A stretch of DNA of 64,000 nt from Caryophanales bacterium (GTDB taxonomy: Bacteria; Bacillota_I; Bacilli_A; RF39; UBA660). A model generated the notes under the pieces. That model had not been told where the DNA came from, ran no database searches, and saw only the letters and a list, made by a program, of their open reading frames with translations. The position numbers were made by a program, and so were the translations under genes. This document shows, one piece after another, positions 8,969 through 44,484 of this stretch (its first letter is position 1; every line of letters begins with the position of its first letter). The stretch covers positions 1 through 64,000 of the forward strand of contig JAEEJY010000033.1 in NCBI GenBank assembly GCA_016282155.1, written 5' to 3'.

Positions 8969-8993
8969 TAGGGGTCTTTACCCCTAGTACATA
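8969..8993 (+). promoter_or_regulatory. Late intergenic module 1: hairpin + GTACATA
   Basis: TAGGGG pairs with CCCCTA across loop TCTTTA (8969-8986), followed directly by GTACATA (8987-8993) and the ribosome binding site of the terminase-proximal gene. One of six copies of this arrangement on the + strand of the late region. Confidence 0.7.
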
Positions 8994-9005
8994 GAAAGGG
9001 AAATT

Positions 9006-9953
9006 ATGGCTAAAATAGAACCAAAATTTTCCACTTGTGTTGCTTGTGGCAGAGAATATACAATAGACCATTTTTACAAAAGAAATAAAAATTATGTTGA
9101 TGAATTTTCTAATGGTTACTTATGCTACTGCGATAAGTGTTGTGCAGAAATGTTAAAGTTCTACACAAAGAAAACTGGTAGTTTACAAAGTGGTTTTTAT
9201 TACACTTGTGCAAGACTCAATGTTCCGTTTATTAGGAAGCCTTATGAGTCAGTAATAAAACAAAAGAACGCATTCCAAAACAGAAGTAAATCACCCAAAG
9301 AAGACACTACTTATGATTTATTTTATTGGTATTGGGACTTCTTATGGGGAAAGTCAACAAGAATGACACCTACTGATACTTGGAATGAATTTTGTGATTC
9401 GGATATGAAAGCACAAGATGATGAATCAGTAAAGTCCAAAGAAGCAATACAGTTGGAAATGGACAAATATAAGATGGATTGGGGAAATCAAGAAAATATA
9501 GATGACTATAAATATCTATCTTATGTTTATGAAAAATATACGCAAGGACTTAATATAGAGTCTGCGCAACAAGATGACCTTATAAGAGATTTATGTATTG
9601 CAAGATTAGATAAAAGAAAAGTTGATGATGGTCGCTCGGCAGAAGACGTGACTAAAATTCAGAATAGAATCTTGCAATTATTAAATAAATTAAAATTGGA
9701 CAATTTTGAAAGTTCAAAACCTAAAACTTTAAGTGAACAATTCTTATCCAATAAGATTGCCATGATAGATGAAAATAATGTCAAAGATATTTATACTAAC
9801 AAAGATTATGAATATAAAGACATTAACAAAATACAAAAATATTACAAAGATATGTGTTTAAGACCTTTAGGCAATATGCTATTAGACAATAGAACATTTG
9901 ATATTGATATCAATGATATTGAACAATATAATTTGGACGAAGTAAATGAGTAA
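9006..9953 (+). CDS. Putative small terminase subunit (zinc-ribbon DNA-binding protein)
   Basis: 315 aa. The N-terminus has a four-Cys zinc site (CVAC at about 11-14 and CDKC at about 43-46). The remainder is helical and charged. It overlaps the large terminase start by 8 nt (9946-9953), the usual place of the small terminase subunit, which recognises DNA for packaging. The assignment rests on position and the zinc finger, not on sequence family. Confidence 0.6.
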   Translation: MAKIEPKFSTCVACGREYTIDHFYKRNKNYVDEFSNGYLCYCDKCCAEMLKFYTKKTGSLQSGFYYTCARLNVPFIRKPYESVIKQKNAFQNRSKSPKEDTTYDLFYWYWDFLWGKSTRMTPTDTWNEFCDSDMKAQDDESVKSKEAIQLEMDKYKMDWGNQENIDDYKYLSYVYEKYTQGLNIESAQQDDLIRDLCIARLDKRKVDDGRSAEDVTKIQNRILQLLNKLKLDNFESSKPKTLSEQFLSNKIAMIDENNVKDIYTNKDYEYKDINKIQKYYKDMCLRPLGNMLLDNRTFDIDINDIEQYNLDEVNE

Positions 9954-11715
9954 AGAAGAAGATATTGAAATAGCAAAACTCGCCAAAAAGGAAAGTAAAA
10001 GCAAACCCATAGATAAAAAAGATTATGACAGAAAAATTGCACAATGGCAAATGTTTTTCTTACATAATTTAAATATTTTTGTAAAAGAAGTTTTAGGAAT
10101 ACCTTTACATTTCTTTCAAGAGCAATTATTGTTAGAAATGTGGGATAGTGAAGTATTTGCATTTATTGGTAGTCGAGGAATTGGTAAATCATTCCTTGTA
10201 GCAGTTTTCGTAGTTGCAATTTGTTTACTGCTACCAAATTATAAAGTTGTAATATGTTCTATGACTATAGGACAGGGTAACCTTATAGTTGAAGAAAAGA
10301 TAAAGAAAATATTATCAAGCAACACTGGTTTGTCTAAAGTGCTAAATCAATTAGTTAAAGATGGATATATGGAATTTGGTAAAGATAGAGACACTGGTGG
10401 TGCTTTAGTTAAATTTGGAAACGGCTCGGAAATACTTTCTGCGTTTATTGGAGAAAGTTTACGTGGACGAAGATGCAATTTATTAATTACTGATGAATGT
10501 TGTCTAATCAAGAAAAAAGATTACGATTCTATCGCAGAACCTTTATTGGAAAAATATTCTTATAATGGTTTAGAGATAGAACCCAAACAAATATTCTTAA
10601 CTTCACCTAGAAATAAGGCTAGTTGGTTTTGGACTTATTTAAAGAAGTTAGTCCGTGACCATTATAAAGGTAAAACAGAAAGAAATTTCTTTGCTTCTGA
10701 CATTTATTGTGCAGTAGCAAATAAAATTCAGACAGTTAAACAGTTTCTTTCAAGACGAGATAACACAGACCCTTATGCTTGGGAACAAGAATATCTTTGT
10801 ATTTGGCACGGAGATAAAGAAGACGCAATCTTTAAGCGTCAAGATTATTTAGATGCTCAAATATTAGATTGTACTTATTATCCACCTAACTTAAATTATG
10901 ATTTTAAGAATATTATAGAATATAAAGAAAACGAAGTAAGATTTTTATGTGCCGACCTTGCATTGAGTGGTGGTAAAGAAAATGACTTAACCATACTAAT
11001 GTATTGTATTGCAGAAATCGACACGGGCAATTTAAGAATTGAATATATAACTAGTTATAGTGGTATGAATGCTAATGAACAAGTTAAAAGATTTAAGAAA
11101 GCCCTTGTAGATTTTAATGCTACATATTTTGTATATGATGCAAAAGGTATCGGTGTTGGTATTACTGATATTATGATGGCTAAAACATATTGTGAAGATA
11201 AAACATATGGTGCTTGGACTGTTAATACAGATAAGACTTTAATGATGTGTTCACAATCAGTTTTAGATGAGAAGGTAGCAAGAACTATTGAACAAGATTC
11301 ATTAGATGTAATGATTCCTGTTGTATCAAGTTCTGATTCAAACTCTAAAAACCATTATAATCTTTGGTCATACTTAAGAAACAAAAAGTTAAAATTGTTA
11401 AAAGACAGATATACTAAAGAATATGAATTGCAAGATGAAATGCCTACTTTTGTTACTAAAGATAGTGCAGAAAAGGCAGAAATATTATTGCCATATCAAC
11501 AAACTGACTTAATGATAAATGAAAGTTGTAGTTTGGAAATTATAAGAAATGGTTTGGATAATATTACTGTTAAAGAAAAGAGTGGTGCATTAAAGGATAG
11601 ATTTATGTGTCTTGGTTATGCCTGTGCTTTTGCAAATAAATTGTACACTAAATATCAAATTGGTTATGATGAAGAATTTGATATTAATGATTATACAGAA
11701 GCCTTCAATATTTAA
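9946..11715 (+). CDS. terL: Terminase large subunit
   Basis: 589 aa, normal length. The ATPase half has Walker A GSRGIGKS (residues 75-82), a motif CSMTIGQ, and Walker B with the catalytic acid LLITDE (179-184). The C-terminal RNase H-fold nuclease has FLCADLALSGGKENDLT and YFVYDAKGIGVG with its acidic residues. It powers DNA translocation into the prohead and cuts the concatemer. It overlaps the upstream zinc-ribbon gene and is followed by portal, as expected. Confidence 0.95.
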   Translation: MSKEEDIEIAKLAKKESKSKPIDKKDYDRKIAQWQMFFLHNLNIFVKEVLGIPLHFFQEQLLLEMWDSEVFAFIGSRGIGKSFLVAVFVVAICLLLPNYKVVICSMTIGQGNLIVEEKIKKILSSNTGLSKVLNQLVKDGYMEFGKDRDTGGALVKFGNGSEILSAFIGESLRGRRCNLLITDECCLIKKKDYDSIAEPLLEKYSYNGLEIEPKQIFLTSPRNKASWFWTYLKKLVRDHYKGKTERNFFASDIYCAVANKIQTVKQFLSRRDNTDPYAWEQEYLCIWHGDKEDAIFKRQDYLDAQILDCTYYPPNLNYDFKNIIEYKENEVRFLCADLALSGGKENDLTILMYCIAEIDTGNLRIEYITSYSGMNANEQVKRFKKALVDFNATYFVYDAKGIGVGITDIMMAKTYCEDKTYGAWTVNTDKTLMMCSQSVLDEKVARTIEQDSLDVMIPVVSSSDSNSKNHYNLWSYLRNKKLKLLKDRYTKEYELQDEMPTFVTKDSAEKAEILLPYQQTDLMINESCSLEIIRNGLDNITVKEKSGALKDRFMCLGYACAFANKLYTKYQIGYDEEFDINDYTEAFNI

Positions 11716-11735
11716 AGAAAGGGGGTTATTATACT

Positions 11736-13313
11736 TTGGAAAATACGGAAGAAGTTTCGTTAAGTTCCGAACAAGTATGGGACGTATTACAATATGCAGA
11801 CGCTTTATATCGTGATATTAAAATAAATGGTTTAGACCTTTATGGGAATACATATTTTTACAACCCTAGTACTGAAAAACTTAATTTAAAGAACTTAACA
11901 AACAACCCAAAAGTTTCTAGTCTCGAAGAAATTAGAAGCGCACAAGCGAATTATAAATACAATGATGAATTATTACAAGAAATGTCCGAATTTATGAAAT
12001 ATTGGGACAGTCTCTATAATAAAGCATTAAGATATTATAGTAGTTTACTTGCTTGGAATTGGAGTTATTCTTGTACTAACGCTCAAGGTGCAGATTATGC
12101 GTCTAAAGAATATAAAGAAGATTTACAGAAAGTGTTAGACTTCTTTACTAAATTCAACCTAAAGAGTGAAGGTAGCAGAATTATAGATAACTGTTTAGTT
12201 TCCGATAGTTATTTTACTTGGTTTAGAAAATCTAGTCTTGGATATACATTACAGATAATGCCACAAGATAGATGTAAGATAACAGGTACTAGTGCAGTTA
12301 GTAGATTCTTATATGATTTTGATTTGTCATATTTCTATGACCCTAGTGTTAATATATTGAATTATGATAATTCATTACAGAAAGCCTTTGTAGACTTTTC
12401 TAAAAAAGGCGACAATATTAGAACATTTGCTAATAGCAAAAATGCTTTAAGGACAACCTATATTTACAATAATTGGGTTAGAACAAAAGTAGATAGAGGT
12501 GCTTGGTGTTGGAAATTCAATGATGAAGATTTCAATGTTGTTCCACCTTTTACTGTAATATTTAAAGCAATATTTGATGATGATGTTATTCAGAGATTGC
12601 AGAAGAATAAAGATATGATTGGTTCTAACTTCTTATTGTGGGGTGAAATGCCTTTAAAGAAAGAAGGTATGGTAGGTACTGAAAAATCTGCATTTAAGGT
12701 TGACCCTAAACAGACAGGACAGTTACTTAACCTTGCAAGAAAAGGTGTTAGCAAAGAAATAAAGATTATTCCTTTACCTCTTGAGAATACAAGAACTGCA
12801 CAATTTCAAGATGGTAATTCTAATATGGCTCAAAACCTATTAAAATCTACGGCAGGTCAAATATCTAATGCACCAGAGTTCTTATATAGTACAGAACATA
12901 TGTCTCAAGAAGCATTAAAGAATGCTTTGTATTTAGACTATAAATGGGTGTCAAAGATATATAGACAGATGGAAGACTTCTTGGACTATTTTGTTAACAA
13001 GGAGACTACAAAATATAAATTCAAATTTACTGTTAGTGGCTCTAACTTATATTGGAATAGAAAAGATGAACAAGATAGTTTTATAAAATTATTGGACAAG
13101 GGAATTTTATTAAACGAATCTAAAATCGCTTCATTGTGGGATATGGAATGTCAAGAATTAATTGCAAATATGGACGAGATGAAACATAATGGCTTTATAG
13201 ATAAGTTGCAATTATTATTGAACACAAATACTAACAATGGAGAAGTAAAACCTAATGGAAGACCTATGACTGACGATAACGATAATACTGAATTAAGCAG
13301 AAATTATAGTTAG
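11736..13313 (+). CDS. Portal protein
   Basis: 525 aa, between terminase and protease-scaffold, the standard portal position. The sequence is rich in Tyr/Asn/Lys with YKWVSKIYRQMEDFLDYF in the C-terminal stem region and GQISNAPEFLYS before it, a pattern like SPP1/phi29-type portals. The start is TTG 11736 behind AAAGGGGG (spacing about 13 nt). No ATG is available at the N-terminus. The identity rests mainly on size and gene order. Confidence 0.8.
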   Translation: MENTEEVSLSSEQVWDVLQYADALYRDIKINGLDLYGNTYFYNPSTEKLNLKNLTNNPKVSSLEEIRSAQANYKYNDELLQEMSEFMKYWDSLYNKALRYYSSLLAWNWSYSCTNAQGADYASKEYKEDLQKVLDFFTKFNLKSEGSRIIDNCLVSDSYFTWFRKSSLGYTLQIMPQDRCKITGTSAVSRFLYDFDLSYFYDPSVNILNYDNSLQKAFVDFSKKGDNIRTFANSKNALRTTYIYNNWVRTKVDRGAWCWKFNDEDFNVVPPFTVIFKAIFDDDVIQRLQKNKDMIGSNFLLWGEMPLKKEGMVGTEKSAFKVDPKQTGQLLNLARKGVSKEIKIIPLPLENTRTAQFQDGNSNMAQNLLKSTAGQISNAPEFLYSTEHMSQEALKNALYLDYKWVSKIYRQMEDFLDYFVNKETTKYKFKFTVSGSNLYWNRKDEQDSFIKLLDKGILLNESKIASLWDMECQELIANMDEMKHNGFIDKLQLLLNTNTNNGEVKPNGRPMTDDNDNTELSRNYS

Positions 13314-13324
13314 GAGTTGATATT

Positions 13325-13513
13325 ATGATTATAATTGGCGAACCTTTAGATGAAGAACATTATGTTTGTATTGATTCAGATAGGGGAAAGGTATTACACG
13401 AATTAGGTTTTATTCCAATATATAAAAGCAGTAAAAATGGTAATATGTACTTTATTAAAAGCGATAACATTTTAAAGGTGGTAGAGGAAAAATGGAATAT
13501 CAAAATAGAGTAA
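13325..13513 (+). CDS. Small hypothetical protein between portal and protease
   Basis: 62 aa, ATG 13325 behind AGGAG. Unknown family. Its 3' end overlaps the protease-scaffold start by 22 nt, so they are co-translated. Its content (VCIDSDRGKVLHELGF ... YFIKSDNIL) suggests a small alpha/beta protein. Confidence 0.7.
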   Translation: MIIIGEPLDEEHYVCIDSDRGKVLHELGFIPIYKSSKNGNMYFIKSDNILKVVEEKWNIKIE

Positions 13514-14841: not shown

Positions 14842-14861
14842 TTTTATAAAGGAGAAAAAAA

Positions 14862-15401: not shown

Positions 15402-15426
15402 TAAACTATAGAAAGGAAATGAAAAG

Positions 15427-16545: not shown

Positions 16546-16562
16546 TTAATCACTATAGATAT

Positions 16563-16605
16563 ATTCATAGTGGGAATTAATTTTCCCACTATGAATAAGT
16601 ACATA
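16563..16605 (+). promoter_or_regulatory. Late intergenic module 2: hairpin + GTACATA
   Basis: A 14-bp stem (ATTCATAGTGGGAA with its complement, 16563-16596) is followed after 2 nt by GTACATA (16599-16605), then AAAGGA and the next start. It lies right after the capsid gene. Confidence 0.75.
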
Positions 16606-17367: not shown

Positions 17368-17407
17368 GGGCAGTTATTCTTTTAATTTCTTTAACTGCCC
17401 GTACATA
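17368..17407 (+). promoter_or_regulatory. Late intergenic module 3: hairpin + GTACATA
   Basis: GGGCAGTTA (17368-17376) pairs with TAACTGCCC (17392-17400) across a T-rich 15-nt loop, followed directly by GTACATA (17401-17407). Confidence 0.75.
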
Positions 17408-21694: not shown

Positions 21695-21732
21695 CAAGAG
21701 AGAGTTTAATCGCTCTCTCTTGTAAGTACATA
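21695..21732 (+). promoter_or_regulatory. Late intergenic module 4: hairpin + GTACATA
   Basis: CAAGAGAGAG (21695-21704) pairs with CTCTCTCTTG (21713-21722), then 3 nt, then GTACATA (21726-21732) and AAGGAG. It follows the major tail protein gene. Confidence 0.75.
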
Positions 21733-21752: not shown

Positions 21753-22223
21753 ATGTGTCAATTTACTTTTTATAAAGAAGAAGAAAAGGGTACATATTTC
21801 CCACAGTTATATTGTCATATAACAAACACTTTTTGTCTTTATAGAAAAAAGTGTTTAACAGAAGGTAAATATATATTGATTGACGGAGAAAGTTGGAAGG
21901 ACTGTTATATAATGAATGAATATTTAATAGATAAGAATTTACCACAAGGCGCATATAAAGTTATAAATACTAATACGCGTAGAAATGGTAAAATCGAATT
22001 ATATGTAAGGCTTAATAAAGACACTACTATAAAAGTGGATAGTCCAAATAATGAAATACTTGAATATGTATATTTAGATAAGGTTGGCAATAACTATGTC
22101 GCATATGCTTCGCCCATACAGAAGAAGGTTGAGGAAAAGGTTGAAGAACCTATAGAGCAACCTAAAAAGAAAGAAAATACTACAAAGAAGACGAAGACTA
22201 CAAATGGCAAAAAGAAAAATTAA
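21753..22223 (+). CDS. Hypothetical protein upstream of MazF-like gene
   Basis: 156 aa. The N-terminal part has four Cys in 45 residues (CQF, CHITNTFC, KKC), the middle is beta-like (KIELYVRLNKDTTIKVD), and the last 35 residues are Lys/Thr/Pro-rich and basic. It overlaps the MazF-like start by 20 nt. It does not look like a known MazE-type antitoxin, although position would allow one. Confidence 0.6.
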   Translation: MCQFTFYKEEEKGTYFPQLYCHITNTFCLYRKKCLTEGKYILIDGESWKDCYIMNEYLIDKNLPQGAYKVINTNTRRNGKIELYVRLNKDTTIKVDSPNNEILEYVYLDKVGNNYVAYASPIQKKVEEKVEEPIEQPKKKENTTKKTKTTNGKKKN

Positions 22224-22563
22224 ACAAGGCGACATTTATATGGTTTCTTTTGGTGATACTATTGGTTGTGAACAAAGTGGAGTTAGACCTTGTTTGATAA
22301 TTCAAAATGATTGGGGAAATGAATATAGTCCCACAACCATAATTTTACCAATTACGAGTAAGAATAAAAACATATTGCCTACTCATTATATATTATACAA
22401 GAAAGATTATCCCTCATTATCTTTTGAATGTAATATTGTACTTGGTGAGCAAATTAGATGTATAGACAAAAAGCGACTTGAAAGAAAGTTATGCACCATA
22501 ACAAAAGATGATATTATTAAGATAATAGAAATCTTAAGCCAAAATTTTATTTTAGCAGATTAG
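22204..22563 (+). CDS. MazF/PemK-like endoribonuclease toxin
   Basis: 119 aa, full length for the family. It has the classic layout: GDIYMVSFGDTIGCEQSG, RPCLIIQNDWGN, then TTIILPITSK, and IRCIDKKRL near the end. MazF enzymes cut single-stranded mRNA at short sequence motifs. The gene lies inside the late tail operon, starts within the previous gene, has only a weak ribosome binding site, and has no recognisable antitoxin beside it. A phage use for mRNA turnover or host shutoff is possible. Confidence 0.85.
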   Translation: MAKRKIKQGDIYMVSFGDTIGCEQSGVRPCLIIQNDWGNEYSPTTIILPITSKNKNILPTHYILYKKDYPSLSFECNIVLGEQIRCIDKKRLERKLCTITKDDIIKIIEILSQNFILAD

Positions 22564-26090: not shown

Positions 26091-26180
26091 AAGAATCCTG
26101 TTTTGACCCCCTTTAAAAACTCTGTGAATTGACTGGAAATTCCTAAAGATTTATCTACTAAACTATAATAGAAATATTAT

Positions 26181-26355
26181 AGTGGCAATGTTAATTACAA
26201 AGGTATAGTGATAAAGATAAATATATATGGACAATCAGCAACCAAGCACCTATGGGAATATAGGTGAAGGCTCAACGACTAGAGTTGAAATAATACTCAA
26301 ATAGCGCAGGGAATTATATTAATATTTTAATATAATTATGATATAGTCTGAACAT
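26181..26355 (+). ncRNA. Group I intron catalytic core (P3-P8)
   Basis: Conserved parts in order: P-like AATCAGCAACCAAGC, a P5 hairpin (CCTAT/ATAGG), R-like GGCTCAACGACTAGAG, and S-like GATATAGTC (near 26340). GACTA and TAGTC form P7. The hallmarks are those of subgroup IA phage introns. The homing endonuclease gene starts 25 nt after the S element. Confidence 0.85.
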
Positions 26356-26379
26356 TATATGAAAATATAAGGAGAATGT

Positions 26380-27510
26380 ATGTATAATATAAAAGAAATA
26401 AAAGAGAAATTAAAAAAATATAATTGTAATATAGTTAATGATGAAGAATATATTAATATGACCACACCTTTAACATTGGAACAAAATGGTTATTATACTA
26501 AAATGTGCGTAAACAATGTTTTAAATGGTGAAAAGTTTAATACATTCGGAACAAAAAACCCTTATTGTGTAAAGAATATGAATACTTATGCAAGAAATAA
26601 GGGAATTAAATCTGAAATATTATCTGTAAAATCTGTTGTTAAAAATAATAAACGTAGAATTTTAGTAGAAGTTAAATGCGAAAGATGTGGCGAAATATTT
26701 ACTAGAGAATGGACGCATTTAAAAAACAGTTCAATGCTATGCAATGATTGTGTAAGAAAAAAACAAGTAATCAAACAAACACCAAAGAATATTGAATTTG
26801 TAAAATCAAAAGGATATAAGTTTATTGATATTCCGAAATATTTAAATGTTCACGATAGAGTTATGGTAGAAGATAAAAACGGATATCGTGGTTATATGGA
26901 TATATGTGGAATTAAAAGTAAACAAAGAATGATATGCTTTAGTATGTATACAAATAAAGAAAATTATTTGTATAATGCTCAAAACTATGTAAAGCAAAAT
27001 GGTTTAGATGTTGAAATATTAGATATTAAAACTTATGAAAATAAACAACACCCATTACTATTATGTAAATGCAGTTGTGGTGAAAGTTTTGAAACTAATA
27101 TCTGGCACATAATTCAAGGTAAAACAAGATGTAATAAATGTTCATCTAGGGAAAGTAACAGAGAGTATAAAGTAAAACAATTCCTAGAAGAAAACAACAT
27201 TGAATATATCCAAGAATTTAAATTAAGTGCTTGTAAAGATATTTTACCTTTACCTTTTGATTTTTGGTTAAAAGATTACAATATATTAATTGAAGTAGAT
27301 GGTGAACAACACGAAAAACCAACTGCTTTTGGTGGAGATAGAAATATTGCAGAAATAAATTTTAAACAACAGTTAAAAAGAGACAAAATAAAGAATGATT
27401 ATTGTAAATATAATAACATTCCTTTATTAAGAATTAATTATACAGATATAGATAATACAGATAATTATAAAAATATAATAACTTCTTTCATACATTCCGT
27501 TCAAATTTAA
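26380..27510 (+). CDS. Intron-encoded homing endonuclease (PD-(D/E)XK/Vsr-like)
   Basis: 376 aa, ATG 26380 behind AAGGAG. Two Cys4 zinc ribbons lie in the middle (CERC ... CNDC, about 103-127; CKCSCG ... CNKC, about 227-253). The C-terminal nuclease has LPFDFWL and ILIEVDGEQHEKP, the acidic strands of a PD-(D/E)XK or Vsr-type fold. It ends 17 nt before the 3' splice site. The usual role is to cut intronless alleles so the intron is copied. Not HNH, GIY-YIG or LAGLIDADG. Confidence 0.8.
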   Translation: MYNIKEIKEKLKKYNCNIVNDEEYINMTTPLTLEQNGYYTKMCVNNVLNGEKFNTFGTKNPYCVKNMNTYARNKGIKSEILSVKSVVKNNKRRILVEVKCERCGEIFTREWTHLKNSSMLCNDCVRKKQVIKQTPKNIEFVKSKGYKFIDIPKYLNVHDRVMVEDKNGYRGYMDICGIKSKQRMICFSMYTNKENYLYNAQNYVKQNGLDVEILDIKTYENKQHPLLLCKCSCGESFETNIWHIIQGKTRCNKCSSRESNREYKVKQFLEENNIEYIQEFKLSACKDILPLPFDFWLKDYNILIEVDGEQHEKPTAFGGDRNIAEINFKQQLKRDKIKNDYCKYNNIPLLRINYTDIDNTDNYKNIITSFIHSVQI

Positions 27511-27527
27511 TTTGAATGAACATAAAG

Positions 27528-30500
27528 GAAACAAATATCTTCAAGACTTGTTCAAATTAATGATGAAGCAAGTTCTACAGGTAAGAAATTAAGAGCAATC
27601 TATGAAGACCTTGATATTGCGATATATGATTCAAACGGACAATTACGTTCAACATTTGATATATTGCAAGAGTTAAGTACTAAATGGGAAACTCTTGATA
27701 CAAATACAAAACAATATATTGCGTTAACATCTTCAGGTGCAAACCAAATTCAGAACTTTTATGCTTTAATGTCTAATTTTGGTACTGCCGTAGACGCTAC
27801 TAATACTGCTATAAATGCAAGTGGTAGTGCTTGGAGAGAAAATGCTAAATATATGGAAAGCATTGAAGCCAAAACTCAAAAATTAAAAACTGCAATTCAA
27901 GATTTAATTTTAGGTAATGGTGGACTTGAAAAGTTGATAAAAATCGTTTTAGATTTATCAACTAATATAGTTAAACTTATAGATAATGCAGGTGGTTTAA
28001 CTACAATAATAGGTACATTAAGTGGTGCTTTAATATTATTAAATAGAGAAGCCGTACTTAAACTTGTTCAAGGTTTATTTTCAGTAGGACAAGCAGTAGA
28101 AGAAGCAACGATTGAACTTAAAATATTTGGTACAACTGTAACAACTACTAATACTGCAATTAATGCTACTGCTGGATATATAGGTATTTTAGTATTGGCT
28201 TGTACTGCTTTAGTAGCAGTATTAAGTTATGTTGCTAAAAGTAATGAAAGAACTATAAAAGATATTGGTGAACTTAATCAGAAAATAGAAATTGAAAGAA
28301 ACGAAATTAAGGAAATCACCGATAATCTTGAAAAGTTAAAGAGTAAACTTAACGAACTAAAAAATATTGAAAACCCTAGTTTAACAGATGAAAGAGATAT
28401 ACAAAATTTAAATGTAGAAATTCATCAGTTAGAGACCGAACTTGCTCTTAAGAAAAAGATTAACGAAGAAGACGAAAGAACTAGAGAGAAAAAAGCAAGT
28501 AAGATAGTTAGTGGAAGTTTATTTGCAGGAAATAAATCTTTAGGTGAAGACTTATTAGTAAATGAAGCGTCATATTTTAAACAAGTAACAGGAAGTTCAA
28601 CTAACGAAGGAAAATATGACACGTTAGGGGAAACCTACTATCAACAAGTTATAAGTTACACAGATAGACTTAATGCAGTAAAAGAAAAACTTAATGAATT
28701 AATTGAAGAAAATAGTACTCTTGTAGATGAAAATGGTAATGTACTTGAAGGGCAAAACAAAAAATACGAAGAAAACAATAAAAAGATAGAGATAGCAGAT
28801 AAACTTATTGATAGTTATGATAAAATGCTTATCAAGGCTACTACCGAATTGGAAAATACAACAGAAGGTCTTGATAAAAATTCTTTATCTTATCAGTTGG
28901 CTAGACAGGCTATAGATTATTATTCTGAATCAGTTTGGAACTCTTTAGACGCAACTGAAAAACAAGCAACTTCAGAAGAATTAATTACTTCTGAATTAGA
29001 AAGAGTTAGAGAAGAATATTCACTAACAGATGACGAATATCAAAAACTTCAAGATACAGTAGAAGAAGCAATAGCAAATAAAGGTGATGAAGAAGACGCT
29101 TATCTTGTTGCTTCTAATGCTATTAATGAATTTATCAGTTCTATAAGAGAAGAATCAGATTTATTGTCTGATTGGAACAAACAACTTGATGACCTACAGG
29201 CTAATTACAAAACTTTAAGTGAAGCAGTAGAGGAATATAATACTAATGGTGGCTATTCAGTAGATACTGTACAAAAATTATTAGCATTATCTCCCGAATA
29301 TCTTTCAATGCTTGTTGAAGAAAATGGTCAACTTAAAGTTAGTGAAGAAGCATTAAAAGCAAAAGCCGTTGCAATCATAGAAGAAGCAAAAGCCAAAATC
29401 TATGAAGAAGGTGCAGAAAGAATAAATCAAATAGCGCAAAGAGATTCTACTGCTACTACAAATGAAAATACTCAAGCAGTAAAAAATAATACAGAAGCAA
29501 ATCTCGCTAATGCTAAATCAGTATATGATATGGCAAAATCAAGAGAGTTACTAAATAATGGTGGCGCTCGTAAAGAAATTGACGCTATTGATAAAGATGT
29601 TCAAAAGAGAGTTAAAACGCTTGATAATTTACTTCTCGATTTGGACAAAGATTTCAAGAAGACATTTACGGACGCTAAAACTTCTGCTAGTCAAGCAAAA
29701 TCAGAAGTTAATGCATTGAAGTCTTCTGTTGAAGCCCTTAAACAAGAAGTCGCTGATATGAATGATGAACTTGATAAATATAAGAAAGCCATCAGTTATA
29801 TCAAAGGCAAACTTGATGAAGAAATAGATTCGCTCAAAGAGCAAAGAGATATCGAAGTTCAGTTGCTTGAAGACAAGATAGAAGCACTCGAAGATGAAAA
29901 GCGACTTGACGAAGATAGACATAAAGAAGAAATTCGTTTGCTTGAAGAAGAAAGAGATTTAATAATCAATACTACTAAAGAGCAAATCGAAACTCTTAAA
30001 GAAAGAAAAGAGCAAGAAGAAGAATATTGGAATAATAAAATTCAAGCCCTTAAAGACCAAAATGAAGCGTTAGAAGAACAAGCAGAACTAGAGAAGTTAT
30101 TACTCAATCTTGAAACTGCTAAAAATACTAAAGTCAGAGTTTATAAAAAGGGTCAAGGCTTTGTATGGCAAACTGACGCAGAAGCAGTCAAGAAAGCAAA
30201 GAAAGAACTTGATACTTTCTATAGAAAGAAAGACTATGATAACGCGCTTAAGGAACTTGAGAATTTCAAAAAGGCTTCTTTGGATAGTTATAACGCACAG
30301 ATTGATGATTTAAATAATTATGTTAATTCAGTCAAGAATGCTTATAACACTCAAATTGACGGAATTAATGCCCTTATTGCTACGAATAAGACTAAATATG
30401 ATGAACAAATCACTAGTCTTAAGAATATGGTCAAGCAAACTAAATCTGCTTATGAAGAACAAATAAAGTATTTTGAAGAATACAAAAAGAGTTTTGATAA

Positions 30501-31346: not shown

Positions 31347-31382
31347 AAAGAGAGAAGTTTAGGCTTCTCTCTTTAGTACATA
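31347..31382 (+). promoter_or_regulatory. Late intergenic module 5: hairpin + GTACATA
   Basis: AAAGAGAGAAG (31347-31357) pairs with CTTCTCTCTTT (31364-31374), then GTACATA (31376-31382) and AAAGGAG. It follows the tape measure gene. Confidence 0.75.
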
Positions 31383-37409: not shown

Positions 37410-37413
37410 TCGG

Positions 37414-37442
37414 TTGACAATTTTCATTGAGTATGTTATAAT
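37414..37442 (+). promoter_or_regulatory. Consensus sigma70 promoter inside the late region
   Basis: TTGACA (37414-37419), 17-nt spacer, TATAAT (37437-37442), with TG before the -10. It is the only host-type promoter recognised inside the late rightward region. It drives two small early-type genes, then a structured RNA. Confidence 0.9.
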
Positions 37443-37476
37443 ACTTATAGTTAGTAGATAAAATAGGAGAATAACA

Positions 37477-37662: not shown

Positions 37663-37665
37663 ACA

Positions 37666-37836: not shown

Positions 37837-37849
37837 AAATATATAAATA

Positions 37850-37935
37850 TCGGTGTGGCGAGGAGTAGTCAAGGCAAAACAAAAGTCAATGCAATAGTTG
37901 GGGGTTAACTTTATACCCTTGCCGAGTCACACCGA
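37850..37935 (+). ncRNA. Structured RNA element closed by TCGGTGTG/CACACCGA
   Basis: TCGGTGTG (37850-37857) pairs with CACACCGA (37928-37935). Inside, GGCAA pairs with TTGCC. The sequence GTAGTCAAGGC looks like a tRNA D-arm, but there is no T-arm motif. It lies between the small early-type genes and the next fibre gene. It may be a degenerate or novel tRNA-like RNA, or a leader or terminator. Function unknown. Confidence 0.45.
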
Positions 37936-37960
37936 ATTTATTTTAAAAAGGAGATAAAAA

Positions 37961-40066
37961 ATGAGTTTTTACTATAAAAAGCAACTAATTTCTGGGGTTA
38001 ATGTACCTTCGGAATACACACTTGCAGAATATAATAATCTAACTGTAAAACCTCAAGAATGGATAAGAACAGATTCTCCTACAGAAAACGCGTCTAAATT
38101 ATTAAGATTAAATGACGTTAATATAAATAACCCTACAGATAATGAAGTATTAGCCTATGATAATATTTTACATAAATGGACAAATCAAAAGGCTAGTGGT
38201 GGTCTAGTTGCGAGAATTAAAGTATTGTCAGAAACGGGTTCAACTGTTACTGCAACTAAAGACGCAACTACAATTACTTTAGTAGAAGTTACAAGTGGTG
38301 TATTTCAATGTGATATTGAAGAATATGGCACTTGGGTTGTAAGTTCTACATATGATGATTTTGCAATACAAGAAAGTGTAGTAGTAGATACTGCTAAAGT
38401 ATATACTGTAACAACAAATCACTTTAGAGCAAGTATAACAGTAACATATCCTAGTGGTGCGACTGTTAGTTGTTCTAAAATCGGACAAGAAACTCAATAC
38501 GCAGATAGTAATCCTTATACATTTGAAGTTGAAGAAAGTGGTATTTGGACTATTACAACTACTAAAGATGGTAAGAGTTGGACGCAAGATGTTGTTATTT
38601 CAACTAGTGGTGAAGAAGATGATATTGAATCAGTGCCTGATGGTAATACTGTAACTGCTAATGATATAACTTATCTGTTGTATTGTTCAGAAGTATTTGA
38701 TAAATCTTATACTACATTGTCGCAGATATTAAATGATAGTGATACTTTGTTTGCAGTAATAAATTCAGAAAATGGTATAGATTATCTTGTAAGAAGTACA
38801 TCTTATGCAAGTGATATTGCAAGTAATCAAACTGCTATGTCTGTAATAGGCGCAAGTGATTATGCAAGTAATACTTTGCTCGAAGATACTACTTGGAGAA
38901 CTGCTTTATTAACTTCTAGTTATGCAAGTAGCATTATTAATACAGAAAACCCTGTAATGTATGGAAATACAGTTCCTACGGGAGAATGTAGTGCAAGTTC
39001 TACTAATGGTAGTAACTCACCTTATAAGGCATTTAATGGAAGCACAAGTAATTATTGGGAAGCAACTTCTACAACTAATTCTTGGGTACAATATGCGTTT
39101 GCTAATGCTGTTAAGATTCAGAAGTGTGTAATTACACCTAATTATGTTTCTAGTAATCTTTGTGCAAAGAATTATAAGGTTCAAGCATCAAATGATAACT
39201 CAACTTGGGTTGATTTATATACAGGAATATTTAATAACGCAAATGATGAAACTGCAACCATAGTATTTAGAAATGTTAATGCTTATAAATATTATAGAAT
39301 AAATACCACTGACGCTTATGGTAGCAATAGAATTGGTTATAAGAGTATTAAATTCTTTGGTAGACAGAATGGTGGTATTCAGACTTGGTTAAGAGCAGGT
39401 GGAATCACTAATAAGCAGTATACAACATTAAGTGCAGTTCTTGCAGATACAAGTACAGTTGCAACACTTATGGCTAATAATGACGCAGTAGATTATCTTG
39501 TAACAGTTCATAGTTGGTCTAGTGATATTTGCTATAATGAAAATGCAATGCAGTGTATAGGCGCAAATAATTATTGTGCTAATACATTACTCGCAGACCC
39601 TAGTTGGTTAACAGATATTTATATTTCTGAAAATTACTATGCTTATGTATTGAATGTACAGACACCTATGATGACTTCTAATACAACACCTTCTGGTGAA
39701 GTATTCGCAAGTAGTGTCGCGTCTGGTCAAGCATATTTAGCATTTGATGGATATTATGAGACTTGTGTAAGTATTCCTAATGCAGTCGGTAATTATATTG
39801 GTTATGATTTTGGTAGTGCTAAACATATGTATCTTGCAGTATTCCAAGTAGAAAATACTAGTGGTACTACATATAAGTTGCAAGGCTCAAGTGATGGTAC
39901 AACGTGGACGGATATTGAATCGTTTAGTTCAGATTCGTTTATACCTAATTCGTTGCCTATTAATGATACTTATAGAATGTATAGATTCTATCAGAACTCA
40001 AAGACTACTAATAATGCTAATATTGATTATTATGACATTACTTTGTATGGTAGACAAGATGTATAG
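37961..40066 (+). CDS. Receptor-binding protein with discoidin (F5/8C-like) domains, copy 1
   Basis: 701 aa. N-terminal anchor YKKQLISGVNVPSEYTL (about 5-45) is shared with the 45468 gene. A beta-rich middle follows (about 75-220). Then come two copies of a module: DYLVRSTSYASDIASNQTAM ... YASNTLLEDTTW, followed by a discoidin-like fold (ASNDNSTWVDLYTG ... KYYRINTT). Discoidin domains bind sugars, so host recognition is likely. At residues QTWLRAGG this copy has Trp where copy 2 has a stop. Confidence 0.75.
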   Translation: MSFYYKKQLISGVNVPSEYTLAEYNNLTVKPQEWIRTDSPTENASKLLRLNDVNINNPTDNEVLAYDNILHKWTNQKASGGLVARIKVLSETGSTVTATKDATTITLVEVTSGVFQCDIEEYGTWVVSSTYDDFAIQESVVVDTAKVYTVTTNHFRASITVTYPSGATVSCSKIGQETQYADSNPYTFEVEESGIWTITTTKDGKSWTQDVVISTSGEEDDIESVPDGNTVTANDITYLLYCSEVFDKSYTTLSQILNDSDTLFAVINSENGIDYLVRSTSYASDIASNQTAMSVIGASDYASNTLLEDTTWRTALLTSSYASSIINTENPVMYGNTVPTGECSASSTNGSNSPYKAFNGSTSNYWEATSTTNSWVQYAFANAVKIQKCVITPNYVSSNLCAKNYKVQASNDNSTWVDLYTGIFNNANDETATIVFRNVNAYKYYRINTTDAYGSNRIGYKSIKFFGRQNGGIQTWLRAGGITNKQYTTLSAVLADTSTVATLMANNDAVDYLVTVHSWSSDICYNENAMQCIGANNYCANTLLADPSWLTDIYISENYYAYVLNVQTPMMTSNTTPSGEVFASSVASGQAYLAFDGYYETCVSIPNAVGNYIGYDFGSAKHMYLAVFQVENTSGTTYKLQGSSDGTTWTDIESFSSDSFIPNSLPINDTYRMYRFYQNSKTTNNANIDYYDITLYGRQDV

Positions 40067-40074
40067 GAGAATAT

Positions 40075-40332
40075 ATGAAAAGAAGTTTTACTGATAAGTT
40101 ATATTTATTTAATCTTATCTTTTCTTGGTTATTTATTGCAATATGTATTGCATTAACTGTTTTTAGTGGATATTTAAATATAACTGATTTATCTATAGTT
40201 AACGTAGGAATACCTACAATCTTTGCAGAACTTTCCGTGCATACAGGTTTTGTAATATGGAAAGCAAAGGTAGAGAATTGTAGAAAATTTAAAGATGTAA
40301 ATTTGTTACAAGAATTAGAAAGCGAGGTTTAA
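40075..40332 (+). CDS. Holin-like small membrane protein
   Basis: 85 aa with two predicted transmembrane segments (about 9-33 and 42-62) and a short charged C-terminus. It lies directly upstream of the LLH-type holin and the endolysin, so a lysis-cassette holin or antiholin is likely. ATG 40075 behind AGGAG. Confidence 0.6.
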   Translation: MKRSFTDKLYLFNLIFSWLFIAICIALTVFSGYLNITDLSIVNVGIPTIFAELSVHTGFVIWKAKVENCRKFKDVNLLQELESEV

Positions 40333-40333
40333 T

Positions 40334-40687
40334 ATGAATATCGACTTTGAAATTGTAAAATTAATTGTTTATTTGGTAATGGCTTTAGCCGTACTTGTAG
40401 TTAGTGGCTTTGTTCTTCCTATGGTTAGACAGAATATTGGCACAGAGAAGTACAATTTAATATTGGGATATATTGAACAAGCAGTTAATTCAGCAGAACA
40501 GATTTTCGGTGGAGAAGGAACGGGCGAACAGAAGAAAGCATATGTTATTCACATTATGCAAGGTATACTTGAGAAGGTTGGTTATAAACTCACCGAAGAA
40601 CAGTTGAATATGCTTATTGAGTCGGCAGTTAAGGCTATGAATGACGCTAAAGCAATTAATGAGAAATTAGATGTTAAAGTTGAATAA
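40334..40687 (+). CDS. LLH-family phage holin
   Basis: 117 aa: one transmembrane segment (about 8-32), then helical soluble part with NLILGYIEQAVNSAEQIF and KVGYKLTEEQLNMLIESAVKAMN, the pattern of LL-H-type holins. It opens the membrane for the endolysin. Located just before the endolysin. Confidence 0.8.
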   Translation: MNIDFEIVKLIVYLVMALAVLVVSGFVLPMVRQNIGTEKYNLILGYIEQAVNSAEQIFGGEGTGEQKKAYVIHIMQGILEKVGYKLTEEQLNMLIESAVKAMNDAKAINEKLDVKVE

Positions 40688-40700
40688 GGAAGGTGATAAA

Positions 40701-41732
40701 ATGCAAGGAATTGATGTTTCTAATTATCAAGGAAATATTGATTGGGCTAAAGTAAAGGCTAGTGGTAAAGACTTTGCTATTATCCGTGCAGGTTGGGGTC
40801 AGACTAATACAGACCCCAAGTTCAAAGAATATATAGAGAATGCAATTAAGAATGGATTCAATATTGGAATATATTGGTTCATTTATGCAAGAAGTGAAAA
40901 GGACGCTATTAATAATGCTATTAAATGTGATAGTTTAATTGCGCCTTATAAGCAGTATATTAATTTTAAAGTCTGGGCAGATTGGGAATATGATAGTGAT
41001 AACTATTGTAAAGGTCTTGATAAAAATACAAGAACTCAATGGGTTAAGGCTTTCTGTAATAAGATTAAAGAACGTGGTTATGATGTAGGTATTTATGCTA
41101 ACCCTGATTATATCAAGAATAAATTTGGAGATATCTCTGAATATCCTTTATGGTTGGCTTATTATACATCTAGCGTAAATTCTGCAATGGCATACAACCC
41201 TTTGATGTGGCAGTATTCTTCTAAAGGTAGAGTTAATGGTATTGGTGGTAATGTTGACCTCGATGAGTATTATGGTAATTTTATACAAGTTAAGACTGAA
41301 GAACCCAAACCTAAAACAGAGACTGCACCTATAACAGAAGTTGCTACAACAACTAATTATAAAGTTAAAAGTGGAGATACTCTTGGCGCGATTGCGTCAA
41401 AGTATAAAACTAATGTTGACACTTTAATGAAACTTAACCCTCAAATTAAGAATAGAAATCTTATTCAGACAGGTCAGATTATTAAAGTGCCTAGCATTAC
41501 AAGTGTTATATCTAATCCTTATAAAGAACCTATTGTAATATTAAAACACGGTTCAAGAGGTGAAGGTGTAAAATGGTTACAGTGGGCTTTAAAGTCCAAA
41601 GGTTATGATTTAGTTATAGATGGTATTTTTGGCAACTGTACTAACAACGCAGTATTGAATTTTCAGAAAAGCGTTGGTATTCAAGTTGATGGCAAAGTTG
41701 GAGTTATAACAAGAACAGAACTTAAGAAGTAA
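40701..41732 (+). CDS. Endolysin: GH25 lysozyme + LysM + peptidoglycan-binding domain
   Basis: 343 aa from ATG 40701 (AGGAAGG upstream). Residues 1 to about 195 are glycoside hydrolase 25: GIDVSNYQGNIDWAKVK, FAIIRAGWG, and WADWEYD with the acidic catalytic pair. A LysM repeat follows (YKVKSGDTLGAIASKY, about 225-270). The C-terminus is a peptidoglycan-binding type 1 domain (WLQWALKSKGYDLVIDGIFG, about 290-343). It cleaves the glycan strands of the wall at lysis. Confidence 0.92.
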   Translation: MQGIDVSNYQGNIDWAKVKASGKDFAIIRAGWGQTNTDPKFKEYIENAIKNGFNIGIYWFIYARSEKDAINNAIKCDSLIAPYKQYINFKVWADWEYDSDNYCKGLDKNTRTQWVKAFCNKIKERGYDVGIYANPDYIKNKFGDISEYPLWLAYYTSSVNSAMAYNPLMWQYSSKGRVNGIGGNVDLDEYYGNFIQVKTEEPKPKTETAPITEVATTTNYKVKSGDTLGAIASKYKTNVDTLMKLNPQIKNRNLIQTGQIIKVPSITSVISNPYKEPIVILKHGSRGEGVKWLQWALKSKGYDLVIDGIFGNCTNNAVLNFQKSVGIQVDGKVGVITRTELKK

Positions 41733-41742
41733 AGGAGAGATT

Positions 41743-42234
41743 ATGAGAGGATATAGAATGACTGCATTCAATGGTGGGGAAGAACCCGTAGCCAAAGAAT
41801 TGTGGTTATATGATTATGACAATTCTAGTGAGTACGCTTCTCTTTGGAGTCCTACAGTACCTCGAATATCAGTATCGCGACCTGGCGCAAGTTCGGATTG
41901 GAATAGTTATAGTACTTCATTAATTAATTTTAAGAATATATCTAAATATAAATATTGCCATATTATAGGAAGTACATCTGGTTATACACCTTATGGTTCT
42001 GCTAATAGTGCTTCCATTTGGTTATCCAATTCTGCTAATAAGAATGTTAAAACATTATATTCAAGAGGTTCTGCTGGCGGTGGAACTGGCATTGCGATTA
42101 ATGTTACTATAGATATTTCGGATATAACCGAAGATATTAAAATTAATTGTTCTGTAGGCGCTCAATGTGGAAGTACAGGTAATACTTGTTGGTCAAGATT
42201 TGAGTTAACTAAATTATGGTTTGCGAATGAGTAG
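41743..42234 (+). CDS. MRGY-family tail accessory protein 1
   Basis: 163 aa. Begins MRGYRMTAFNGGEEP. A beta-sandwich-like body follows, with Ser/Thr/Gly/Asn-rich strands, ending SRFELTKLWFANE. It is one of at least four paralogues that share the MRGY start and a C-terminal (I/V/L)W motif. Probably a small receptor-binding or baseplate decoration protein. Confidence 0.6.
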   Translation: MRGYRMTAFNGGEEPVAKELWLYDYDNSSEYASLWSPTVPRISVSRPGASSDWNSYSTSLINFKNISKYKYCHIIGSTSGYTPYGSANSASIWLSNSANKNVKTLYSRGSAGGGTGIAINVTIDISDITEDIKINCSVGAQCGSTGNTCWSRFELTKLWFANE

Positions 42235-42244
42235 GTGAATATAA

Positions 42245-42715
42245 ATGCGAGGTTATAAAATGAGTGGCATAGAAGAAGGAGAAGGAGATAGTAAGTTTAA
42301 AATCTTTTGGCTCGGTGTAGTTGAAGGAGTTACTTGGGGCTTTTCAAAAAGTCTCCCTGATTCTGATTCTAGGGCAAGTTATTCAACGGGAAGTAGAATG
42401 TCTTCTTCTGTATCTGAATATTATGCACAAAGTAGTTTGTATTCGTCTGCAATCAATTTAACAGATTATTCTAAATTATGTATTACTGCTACAGTTGGTA
42501 GTGGTGCTTCAAATAACGGAACATACCAATATGGAATAACTAATAATATTGGAATAAATCAAACATTTACTAAAGTGCTTACTACCCCTGGTGCAGGCAA
42601 CTTCGTTATTGATATTTCAAGTCTTCAAGGAAATTATTATTTTAAGATTTTTGAAAGTTCTGGAAATAGAAGTTCTAAAAGTGTTGAAATTACTCACATA
42701 TGGCTTGAGAAATAA
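42245..42715 (+). CDS. MRGY-family tail accessory protein 2
   Basis: 156 aa. Starts MRGYKMSGIEEGEGDSK, then FWLGVVEGVTWGFSKS and DSDSRASYSTGSRM. The C-terminus is FVIDISSLQGNYYFKIF ... THIWLEK. Paralogous to the next gene (shared WTF/WGF, DSDSR and DISSL blocks). Confidence 0.6.
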   Translation: MRGYKMSGIEEGEGDSKFKIFWLGVVEGVTWGFSKSLPDSDSRASYSTGSRMSSSVSEYYAQSSLYSSAINLTDYSKLCITATVGSGASNNGTYQYGITNNIGINQTFTKVLTTPGAGNFVIDISSLQGNYYFKIFESSGNRSSKSVEITHIWLEK

Positions 42716-42726
42716 GGTGTTAATAT

Positions 42727-43206
42727 ATGAGAGGTTATAGACAAATAGACATAAAAGGTGAAGGTGGAGAGAAGCCATCACCACAAACATTAAAGTTGTT
42801 TTGGGATGGACTTGTTAATGATATAACTTGGACATTTACTTGGCATAAATCTGATAGTGATTCAAGAGAGTCGCATTCTATAACAAACACTTTGGCTATT
42901 TCAACATCTGGCTATTATGCAGATTGTATGTTTTATACACCACAAATAGATTTAACAAATTATTCTAAAATAAAGTTTACAGTTAATAGTGGTTGGAGTC
43001 AGACTGCCGATGGGCGCAAAGTTGGTGTTATGATTAATAATGCGCTTAATTCATATACAAGACAACAGACTGGTGTTGGTGGTGCAAATACTTATACATT
43101 AGATATTTCAAGTTTAAGAGGTTTTTATTTTGTTAGTATATATACATCATCACAGAATAGAAATGGGTCTGGTATAACTGTTTCAAGAGTATGGCTTGAA
43201 CAATGA
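42727..43206 (+). CDS. MRGY-family tail accessory protein 3
   Basis: 159 aa. MRGYRQIDIKGEGGEKP, then LFWDGLVNDITWTFTWHKSDSDSRES, and at the C-terminus TYTLDISSLRGFYFVSIY ... SRVWLEQ. Closest to the previous gene. The N-terminus is conserved and the middle variable, as expected for modules under receptor selection. Confidence 0.6.
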   Translation: MRGYRQIDIKGEGGEKPSPQTLKLFWDGLVNDITWTFTWHKSDSDSRESHSITNTLAISTSGYYADCMFYTPQIDLTNYSKIKFTVNSGWSQTADGRKVGVMINNALNSYTRQQTGVGGANTYTLDISSLRGFYFVSIYTSSQNRNGSGITVSRVWLEQ

Positions 43207-43231
43207 TATTATAATATAAAGGAGTGATATA

Positions 43232-44032
43232 ATGGACGTAATAGACGTATCAGTTGCTTCAATGTCGGATAAGAAATTTGACGTTATGGCTAGATATTGG
43301 TATGATAATAACGATGAAAGCACAATGGAAGATTATCCTTACGTTTGTGTTGTAGGTCAAACACCTAGATACGATGATACGAATAAACTTCCTGTTTATA
43401 AAACTGATATTCAGAATGGTGTACCACAAGATATAATCAAGAAGGTATTTAAAGCATTTGAAGATGAAGGAGTAATTGGAAATAAATATTATATTTTAAG
43501 AATATCTAAAACTGCCGAACATCAGTATCACGCAACTTTACTCACAGATACTAATCCTTTAGTTTGTGATTTTGATACTACAAGTAATGAATTAAAGGTA
43601 AGAACATTTGATACTAGTAATGTATGGGACGCTGATTTTATAGAGGATTATCCCCCTATGATATTGGGAACTGCTATTTCCCCTAGTCCATATAATAATG
43701 GTGGTAGTGGAAATGTTGTAACATATTCATATGGTTTGGAGTTTGTTAATCCGTTAATTGATTCAAATGAGGATGTTGTAGTTATTGTAAATCCTAATCA
43801 GAAAGACATATTTGATGGTGAAGATACCATTGTATTTGAAAACAGAGATGTTCCTAAAACTTCAGATAATGCTATGCCTTTATGGCAGTTAAATGGTGTT
43901 GGTATGTTACCTACATCTACAGAAAGAGAAAGTATTAATATGGTTACTGAAGCATATTTTGATTCTACAGGAATTAAACTCTATGCTACAGACCAACCTA
44001 CAGTAGATTTAACATTAGAAATGAAGGTATAA
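43232..44032 (+). CDS. Hypothetical fibre-region protein
   Basis: 266 aa, acidic beta-rich protein without a recognised family. Ends VDLTLEMKV. Preceded by AAAGGAG, and 3 nt before the next start. Context suggests a virion or fibre-assembly protein. Confidence 0.55.
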   Translation: MDVIDVSVASMSDKKFDVMARYWYDNNDESTMEDYPYVCVVGQTPRYDDTNKLPVYKTDIQNGVPQDIIKKVFKAFEDEGVIGNKYYILRISKTAEHQYHATLLTDTNPLVCDFDTTSNELKVRTFDTSNVWDADFIEDYPPMILGTAISPSPYNNGGSGNVVTYSYGLEFVNPLIDSNEDVVVIVNPNQKDIFDGEDTIVFENRDVPKTSDNAMPLWQLNGVGMLPTSTERESINMVTEAYFDSTGIKLYATDQPTVDLTLEMKV

Positions 44033-44035
44033 ATT

Positions 44036-44431
44036 ATGGCTAGAGGTCACAGAACTAATGTTATTACTTTGGCACAAGCAGAACCTTACAAAATAGAAAT
44101 ATTGAATTATGATGGAACATATAGTCGCTGTGTCAATCCAACAGTAACAGATGGAATCCTAACGGCAAGTATAGGTGGAACAATGTGGGGTGTGAGTGAC
44201 CATTTAATAATTCAGTTTTCAGTATCGGACGAAAGTGTATTATCAATAGCAAGTGCATTAACATTAAATGCAAGATATCATATTGTTAATTCAAATAATG
44301 TTTCGGTGTACAATAGTTCTAGTGCAGGTTCAATAACATTATCTGCTGATATATACACTTTTTATATTTATTACCCTTTGTCAAATGTAAATGATTTAGA
44401 CCAACACGGAATAACAGTTAGAAAGAAATAA
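44036..44431 (+). CDS. MARGH-type small tail accessory protein
   Basis: 131 aa. MARGHRTNVITL resembles the MRGY start of the neighbouring family. The rest (LTASIGGTMWGVSDHLIIQFS) is beta-rich and unlike the others. Probably an accessory fibre subunit. Ends before module 6. Confidence 0.5.
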   Translation: MARGHRTNVITLAQAEPYKIEILNYDGTYSRCVNPTVTDGILTASIGGTMWGVSDHLIIQFSVSDESVLSIASALTLNARYHIVNSNNVSVYNSSSAGSITLSADIYTFYIYYPLSNVNDLDQHGITVRKK

Positions 44432-44453
44432 ATATAAATGCTATTCACATAAT

Positions 44454-44484
44454 ATAGGGGAATTTATTTCCCCTATTGTACATA
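44454..44484 (+). promoter_or_regulatory. Late intergenic module 6: hairpin + GTACATA
   Basis: ATAGGGGAA (44454-44462) pairs with TTCCCCTAT (44468-44476), then GTACATA (44478-44484), and AAAGGAG before the next start. Confidence 0.75.

What the first reader, a model, noticed from the sequence alone, without database searches (positions are those of the whole stretch)
8969..44484. Six late hairpins each followed by GTACATA
At 8969, 16563, 17368, 21695, 31347 and 44454, all on the + strand of the late region, a stem-loop is followed within 0-3 nt by GTACATA and then a ribosome binding site. The hairpin sequences differ, but the position of GTACATA is fixed. No copy was seen between leftward early genes. 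It is a candidate late promoter, processing site or anti-terminator signal for the phage polymerase or the beta-CASP RNase homologue.
Basis: partly seen in the sequence, partly recalled or inferred. Interest (0 to 1): 0.8.

Follow-up and report, generated by a model that had tools for sequence, protein, structure and literature searches.

The report
Phage nuclease cut sites between genes
A gut-bacterium phage marks six boundaries between its late genes with an RNA hairpin followed by GUACAUA, and it carries a MazF-type RNA-cutting enzyme whose closest relatives cut exactly this core (UACAU), so the phage has probably turned a bacterial toxin into a tool for cutting its own long messenger RNA into stable pieces.

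Summary
All six sites exist, each in the order stop codon, hairpin, 0-3 nt, GTACATA, ribosome binding site, start codon. With a fixed definition the window yields exactly these six.

The main-promoter reading is not favoured. The phage encodes a YonO-like (SPbeta-type) RNA polymerase. A different element, conserved behind the polymerase gene in relatives, falls on the mapped YonO start site in SPbeta.

Relatives carry hairpins at the same junctions, usually followed by U-rich sequence; GTACATA takes that slot here. The RNA-processing reading gains an unexpected partner: late gene 22204-22563 is a MazF/PemK endoribonuclease. It is closest to S. aureus and B. subtilis MazF, which cut UACAU, and four key residues are kept. 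Relatives G548 and G550, with similar MazF genes, have hairpin-TACATA sites. G193 and G549, with changed MazF residues, have none. In the host's order, seven mazF operons begin with hairpin-TACATA-ribosome binding site, and such sites are about 70 times denser near mazF genes than in control loci.

Best explanation: phage MazF cuts the late polycistronic mRNA at hairpin-flanked GUACAUA. No transcript or enzyme data exist, and UACAU is not depleted in late coding sequence. The beta-CASP gene is a weaker candidate.

The parts
8969..8993 (+). site 1: hairpin TAGGGGT/ACCCCTA + GTACATA (8987-8993), before the terminase small-subunit-like gene 9006
   Evidence: the same arrangement in L010 (6744) and L066 (2474)
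16562..16605 (+). site 2: 15-bp hairpin + A + GTACATA (16599-16605), after the putative major capsid gene
   Evidence: relatives also have a hairpin at this junction
17368..17407 (+). site 3: hairpin + GTACATA (17401-17407)
21695..21732 (+). site 4: hairpin + TAA + GTACATA (21726-21732), after the putative major tail gene, two genes before the mazF-like gene; second GTACATA at 21790-21796
   Evidence: homologous junction reads TTACATA in G548 and TTTTACATA in G550
31347..31382 (+). site 5: hairpin + A + GTACATA (31376-31382), directly after the putative tape-measure gene
44454..44484 (+). site 6: hairpin + T + GTACATA (44478-44484)
22204..22563 (+). MazF/PemK-like endoribonuclease (119 aa), proposed to cut the six sites
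   Evidence: Pfam PF02452 92.5 bits; best PDB matches S. aureus MazF (4e-23) and B. subtilis MazF (8e-21); residues matching B. subtilis G18, R25, P26, T48 conserved
1542..4142 (+). YonO-like single-chain RNA polymerase, expected to transcribe the late genes
   Evidence: phrog_8308; tblastn to SPbeta-type YonO and Enterocloster phage homologues; invariant DFDSD motif
4236..4257 (+). candidate YonO-type late promoter element TAATCCGAACTAATGAGGGGGA
   Evidence: motif in about 20 of 30 divergent RNAP-downstream gaps, of which the window site is one; 22.9 bits here against 13.1 for the next place in the contig
7027..8466 (+). beta-CASP ribonuclease homologue (CPSF73/TTHA0252-like), considered and ranked lower as the cutting enzyme
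   Evidence: Pfam and PDB matches

Best explanation
The six elements are RNA-processing marks in a long late transcript. [quoted passage not shown] A MazF-like endoribonuclease, itself a late gene, cuts the transcript inside GUACAUA at the UACAU core. The hairpin directly upstream keeps the site single-stranded and caps the 3' end of the upstream piece; [quoted passage not shown] This separates highly expressed structural genes from their neighbours and lets MazF act on its own message. Shown here: the sites, their conservation, the MazF gene with intact key residues, and the association of hairpin-TACATA sites with mazF genes. Inferred: cutting, its specificity for these sites, and the effect on mRNA.
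For: (1) Heptamer position is fixed to the hairpin (0-3 nt) and not to the start codon (12-26 nt). (2) The only PF02452 protein found in the 1.17 Mb assembly is in this late operon; its nearest solved relatives are S. aureus and B. subtilis MazF. B. subtilis MazF binds single-stranded RNA at UACAU (PMC6562991) and was solved with UUdUACAUAA, with G18, R25, P26 and T48 implicated (PMC8634880); the phage protein has G21, R28, P29, T51. (3) The gene is conserved at 40-45% in G548, G549, G550 and G193. TACATA follows late hairpins in window, G548 and G550, whose MazF keeps GxEQ and EQxR, but not in G193 and G549, which read GSVQ and EQxT. Nine other phage data sets in which no homologue was detected have 0 of about 75 such hairpins (Fisher P=0.019 without the window). 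(4) In other genomes of the host order, seven mazF operons have hairpin + TACATA + SD directly upstream, and two more mazF loci have such a site before a recombinase gene. A fixed search finds 8 sites in 89 kb of mazF loci against 1 in 1168 kb of controls. (5) No T-run follows the hairpins, unlike the SPbeta late hairpins.
Against: UACAU is not significantly avoided in late coding sequence (48 against 54.6 expected, P=0.14; GTACATA 1 against 2.7), so the enzyme must prefer the hairpin context or longer sequence, or coding sites are shielded. The seven mazF-operon sites are partly orthologous, so the counts are not independent. L010 and L066 have GTACATA sites, but their contigs end before the mazF region. 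No recognizable antitoxin flanks the phage gene. Most relatives keep U-rich hairpins at the same junctions, so the ancestral role may be termination. No RNA data exist for this phage.
Confidence: 0.62

Rival explanations
1. The hairpins are partial transcription terminators for the YonO-like polymerase, with GTACATA as a lineage-specific replacement of the U-tract.
For: Relatives and SPbeta have hairpins at the same junctions followed by T-rich sequence (mean T of first 8: 5.0 in SPbeta, 2.6 in the window). At the tail-gene junction the series TTTTTACTT (G193), TTTTACATA (G550), TTACATA (G548), GTACATA (window) looks continuous.
Against: GUACAUA has two U and should terminate poorly; does not explain the identity of seven bases at six sites or the link to mazF; SPbeta late genes are reported as one operon despite such hairpins (PMC5467207).
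Confidence: 0.17
2. The phage MazF is a host-shutoff or fitness nuclease, and hairpin-UACAU sites serve mainly to control mazF expression; the other sites are by-products.
For: Sites lie upstream of mazF in seven host-order operons, in G548 and at 21726 in the window.
Against: Five of six window sites are far from mazF, at capsid, tape-measure and lysis-side junctions.
Confidence: 0.09
3. GTACATA is a late promoter of the YonO-like polymerase and the hairpin ends the previous transcript.
For: Located before ribosome binding sites of late genes; no host-type promoter in most of the late region; the YonO promoter is unknown (PMC5467207).
Against: A different conserved element maps to the SPbeta YonO start site and occurs once, behind the window polymerase gene; in all six late-gap sites the motif has a hairpin, never alone; some relatives with a 50-60% identical polymerase lack it.
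Confidence: 0.06
4. The phage beta-CASP ribonuclease cuts 3' of the hairpin, like CPSF73 at histone mRNA ends.
For: The gene is present in the late region and matches CPSF73 and TTHA0252.
Against: Phages G536, G537, G539, G193 and MT835469 carry the gene without TACATA hairpins.
Confidence: 0.04

Closest known systems
MazF/PemK endoribonucleases of Firmicutes (B. subtilis EndoA/NdoA, S. aureus MazF)
   Same: sequence family, key residues, and UACAU as the published B. subtilis target
   Different: encoded inside a phage late structural operon, conserved there in five phages, no recognizable antitoxin gene, candidate sites placed at gene junctions next to hairpins
Phage T4 RegB (sequence-specific endoribonuclease; from general knowledge)
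   Same: phage-encoded, small, cuts phage mRNA at a short motif near ribosome binding sites
   Different: RegB cuts GGAG in early mRNA to inactivate it; here the motif is GUACAUA after a hairpin, in late mRNA, upstream of the ribosome binding site
SPbeta late operon and YonO RNA polymerase (PMC5467207)
   Same: homologous polymerase and terminase, similar gene order, hairpins at late junctions
   Different: SPbeta hairpins carry U-tracts; no mazF homologue was found in the SPBc2 late genes by the protein search used here
Plastid intercistronic expression element (title and abstract only, PMC2230500)
   Same: cuts polycistronic mRNA into translatable units
   Different: different system, protein factors and sequence

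Membership tests
MazF/PemK (PF02452) | profile score above curated cut-off | tested here: met
   92.5 bits against cut-off 23.1
MazF/PemK (PF02452) | residues matching B. subtilis G18, R25, P26, T48 | tested here: met
   G21, R28, P29, T51 of the window protein (PMC8634880)
MazF/PemK (PF02452) | cleavage at UACAU or related sequence | not testable with these tools
   needs purified protein
MazF/PemK (PF02452) | adjacent MazE antitoxin (toxin-antitoxin module) | tested here: inconclusive
   neighbouring genes have no meaningful Pfam match; unrecognized antitoxins are possible
YonO-type RNA polymerase | sequence homology to SPbeta YonO | tested here: met
   tblastn hit to Spbetavirus BUCT082 YonO 1e-10 and PMBT24 polymerase 1e-17
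YonO-type RNA polymerase | DxDxD catalytic motif | tested here: met
   DFDSD invariant in three homologues
Intrinsic terminator | G+C-rich hairpin followed by U-tract | tested here: not met
   none of the six has a T-run after the stem; none is in the terminator-like list on the + strand
Sigma-70 promoter | TTGACA-17-TATAAT before the start | tested here: not met
   perfect copies lie in the early region, before the RNAP gene and at 37414, none at the six sites

The most novel reading that the evidence does not exclude
A phage lineage has domesticated a MazF toxin as its late mRNA processing enzyme and co-evolved hairpin-flanked UACAU punctuation marks at gene junctions; the same hairpin-UACAUA mark also sits upstream of mazF operons in bacteria of the host order, so it is a general MazF substrate or autoregulation element.
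Probability: 0.5. Interest if true: 0.9.

Novelty: new variant of a known kind. Interest (0 to 1): 0.78.

Why it matters
The physiological role of MazF toxins is debated. This would be a clear case in which a MazF has designated cut sites chosen by placement and structure rather than random UACAU words, in a system where each site, the enzyme and the transcribing polymerase are encoded within 45 kb. It also gives testable substrates (hairpin + GUACAUA) and a simple explanation for similar elements upstream of bacterial mazF operons. As a by-product, it points to a candidate promoter for YonO-family polymerases, which the original paper left open.

Tried and rejected
Covariance model of the element (R1): too rigid, it missed most of its own training sites, so its negative genome result is uninformative. 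Single-sequence terminase scan of viral contigs found nothing. MazF alignment scan of viral contigs found only the known phages and a near duplicate. UACAU depletion in late coding strand: not significant. Main-promoter reading: tested with the RNAP-gap motif, rejected as the main promoter. Beta-CASP link: no co-occurrence. GGGACACTAAA shared with the SPbeta yonN-yonK gap: suggestive, but not at the mapped start. A literature search for GTACATA with phage gave four papers, none of whose titles or abstracts concern such an element; they were not read in full. The second GTACATA in L010/L066, between SD and start codon of the exonuclease gene, may be chance.

Full report
SETTING. The window is 64 kb of an 81.9 kb contig in a 1.17 Mb genome assembly. 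The genes are those of a tailed phage. Rightward late genes run from about 1.5 to 48.4 kb; leftward early and metabolic genes follow. The 866-aa protein at 1542-4142 is related to the SPbeta RNA polymerase YonO, and the terminase is of SPbeta type. Gene order (polymerase, HU proteins, exonuclease, terminase, portal) follows SPbeta. Leftward early genes have six perfect TTGACA-17/18-TATAAT promoters. In the rightward region only the polymerase gene (1309) and one spot at 37414 have a perfect one. This fits a switch from host polymerase to a YonO-like polymerase for late genes, as shown for SPbeta (PMC5467207).

OBSERVATION. All six hairpin-GTACATA sites are real. GTACATA is not over-represented as a word, but 6 of 15 copies directly follow a hairpin, against 2% expected (P=3.5e-7). 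A fixed rule (hairpin, TACATA within 5 nt, SD within 30 nt) returns exactly the six sites in 64 kb.

RELATIVES. L010 and L066 (polymerase of L010 60% identical; L066 is close to L010) have a hairpin plus GTACATA at the syntenic gap upstream of the terminase small-subunit-like gene. Other YonO-polymerase phages have hairpins at late junctions, regularly after the capsid gene, but usually with U-rich sequence behind the stem. SPbeta shows the same with clear U-tracts. At the junction after the major tail gene the post-hairpin sequence is TAAGTACATA in the window, TTACATA in G548, TTTTACATA in G550 and U-rich in G549 and G193. So the hairpin is old and widespread, and TACATA is particular to a sub-lineage.

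PROMOTER TEST. A motif search of 30 divergent polymerase-downstream gaps, including the window's own, gave TAAAGTCCCCTAATGAAGGAGA. In the window contig its best place is 4236 (22.9 bits; next 13.1), right behind the polymerase gene. SPbeta was not used to build the motif. Its second-best match in the whole SPBc2 genome, and the best on the late strand, is at 60609, with a second copy starting at 60452. Converting the published YonO start site (2,225,998 in B. subtilis 168, PMC5467207) with the yomD-bhlB coordinates given in PMC8270828 places it at 60451, one base from that copy. The conversion assumes no insertion or deletion between the two sequences over 36 kb. The GTACATA sites do not match this motif. 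The published SPbeta data describe one late operon. GTACATA is therefore unlikely to be the main late promoter.

THE ENZYME. The UACAU core suggested a MazF target, because the B. subtilis enzyme cuts UACAU (PMC6562991; for S. aureus the same specificity is general knowledge). A search of the window's own genome for PF02452 found a single protein, and it is in the window at 22204-22563. It is closest to S. aureus and B. subtilis MazF. Residues aligned to B. subtilis G18, R25, P26 and T48, which contact RNA or are needed for toxicity (PMC8634880), are G21, R28, P29 and T51. Homologues occupy the late region of G548, G549, G550 and G193. The three phages with GxEQ and EQxR have TACATA hairpins; the two with GSVQ and EQxT have none. 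This is five genomes only, so it is a pattern and not proof.

INDEPENDENT TEST. I searched 385 genomes of the host's order for relatives of the phage MazF and then looked for the element near them. Seven loci have hairpin, TACATA, AGGAGG-like SD and a 66-69 aa gene directly before mazF. Two others have such a site before a serine-recombinase-like gene about 350 nt after mazF. The fixed rule finds 8 sites in 89 kb of mazF loci and 1 in 1168 kb of other loci. The seven sites are partly homologous, so this is fewer than seven independent events, but the link to mazF was not put in by hand: the loci were chosen by protein similarity alone.

MECHANISM. The simplest joint reading is that MazF cuts the late transcript at the six marks. 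Cutting between hairpin and ribosome binding site leaves a hairpin-capped 3' end and a downstream message with a 5'-OH end. Both are known to slow decay in Firmicutes (general knowledge). The marks follow genes of high demand (putative capsid, tail and tape-measure genes), where separation from neighbours is useful. Shown: sites, placement, conservation, enzyme gene, association. Inferred: cutting, hairpin dependence, effect on mRNA.

WEAK POINTS. UACAU is only slightly under-represented in late genes (P=0.14), so unrestricted cutting would hurt the phage; hairpin or flank preference, or ribosome shielding, must be assumed. The ancestral hairpins look like terminators, so a termination role cannot be excluded. 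L010 and L066 do not reach the mazF region. No expression data are available for this phage.

Noticed in passing
window 4236-4257; loci; NC_001884 60609 and 60452: A conserved element (consensus TAAAGTCCCCTAATGAAGGAGA) lies behind the YonO-like polymerase gene in about 20 of 30 divergent phages; one SPbeta copy starts one base from the published YonO transcription start, so it is a candidate YonO-family promoter or leader element.
   Followed up: partly
window 4173-4183; L006 8341; L095 4755-4765: GGGACACTAAA occurs after the polymerase gene in the window and in the SPbeta yonN-yonK non-coding gap; GGGACAC recurs after the polymerase stop in several relatives.
   Followed up: partly
window 51397-63517, - strand: Six perfect TTGACA-17/18-TGnTATAAT promoters drive the leftward genes; several overlap inverted repeats that look like operators.
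   Followed up: no
window 37414-37442, + strand: A perfect host-type promoter sits inside the late region before small ORFs, like a separately expressed cargo gene.
   Followed up: no
window 6920-6993, + strand: tRNA gene with a four-base anticodon call (ataa) just before the beta-CASP gene (ARAGORN, Rfam 34 bits).
   Followed up: no
window 26107-27663, + strand: Intron-like region with an endonuclease-like ORF (26380-27510) before the tape-measure gene; a similar arrangement is in G193 (L021 6134-7580).
   Followed up: no
L108, L109, L110, L111, L113, L119, L121: A conserved 66-69 aa protein (MKRKKYKVRIKLIFET...MDH...) precedes mazF in these operons and may be an unrecognized antitoxin.
   Followed up: no
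L031, L036/G541, L038, G539, G551 late gaps: Some hairpins in other YonO-polymerase phages share a loop with GTCAAAA or GTCACAA, possibly another lineage-specific late RNA element.
   Followed up: no
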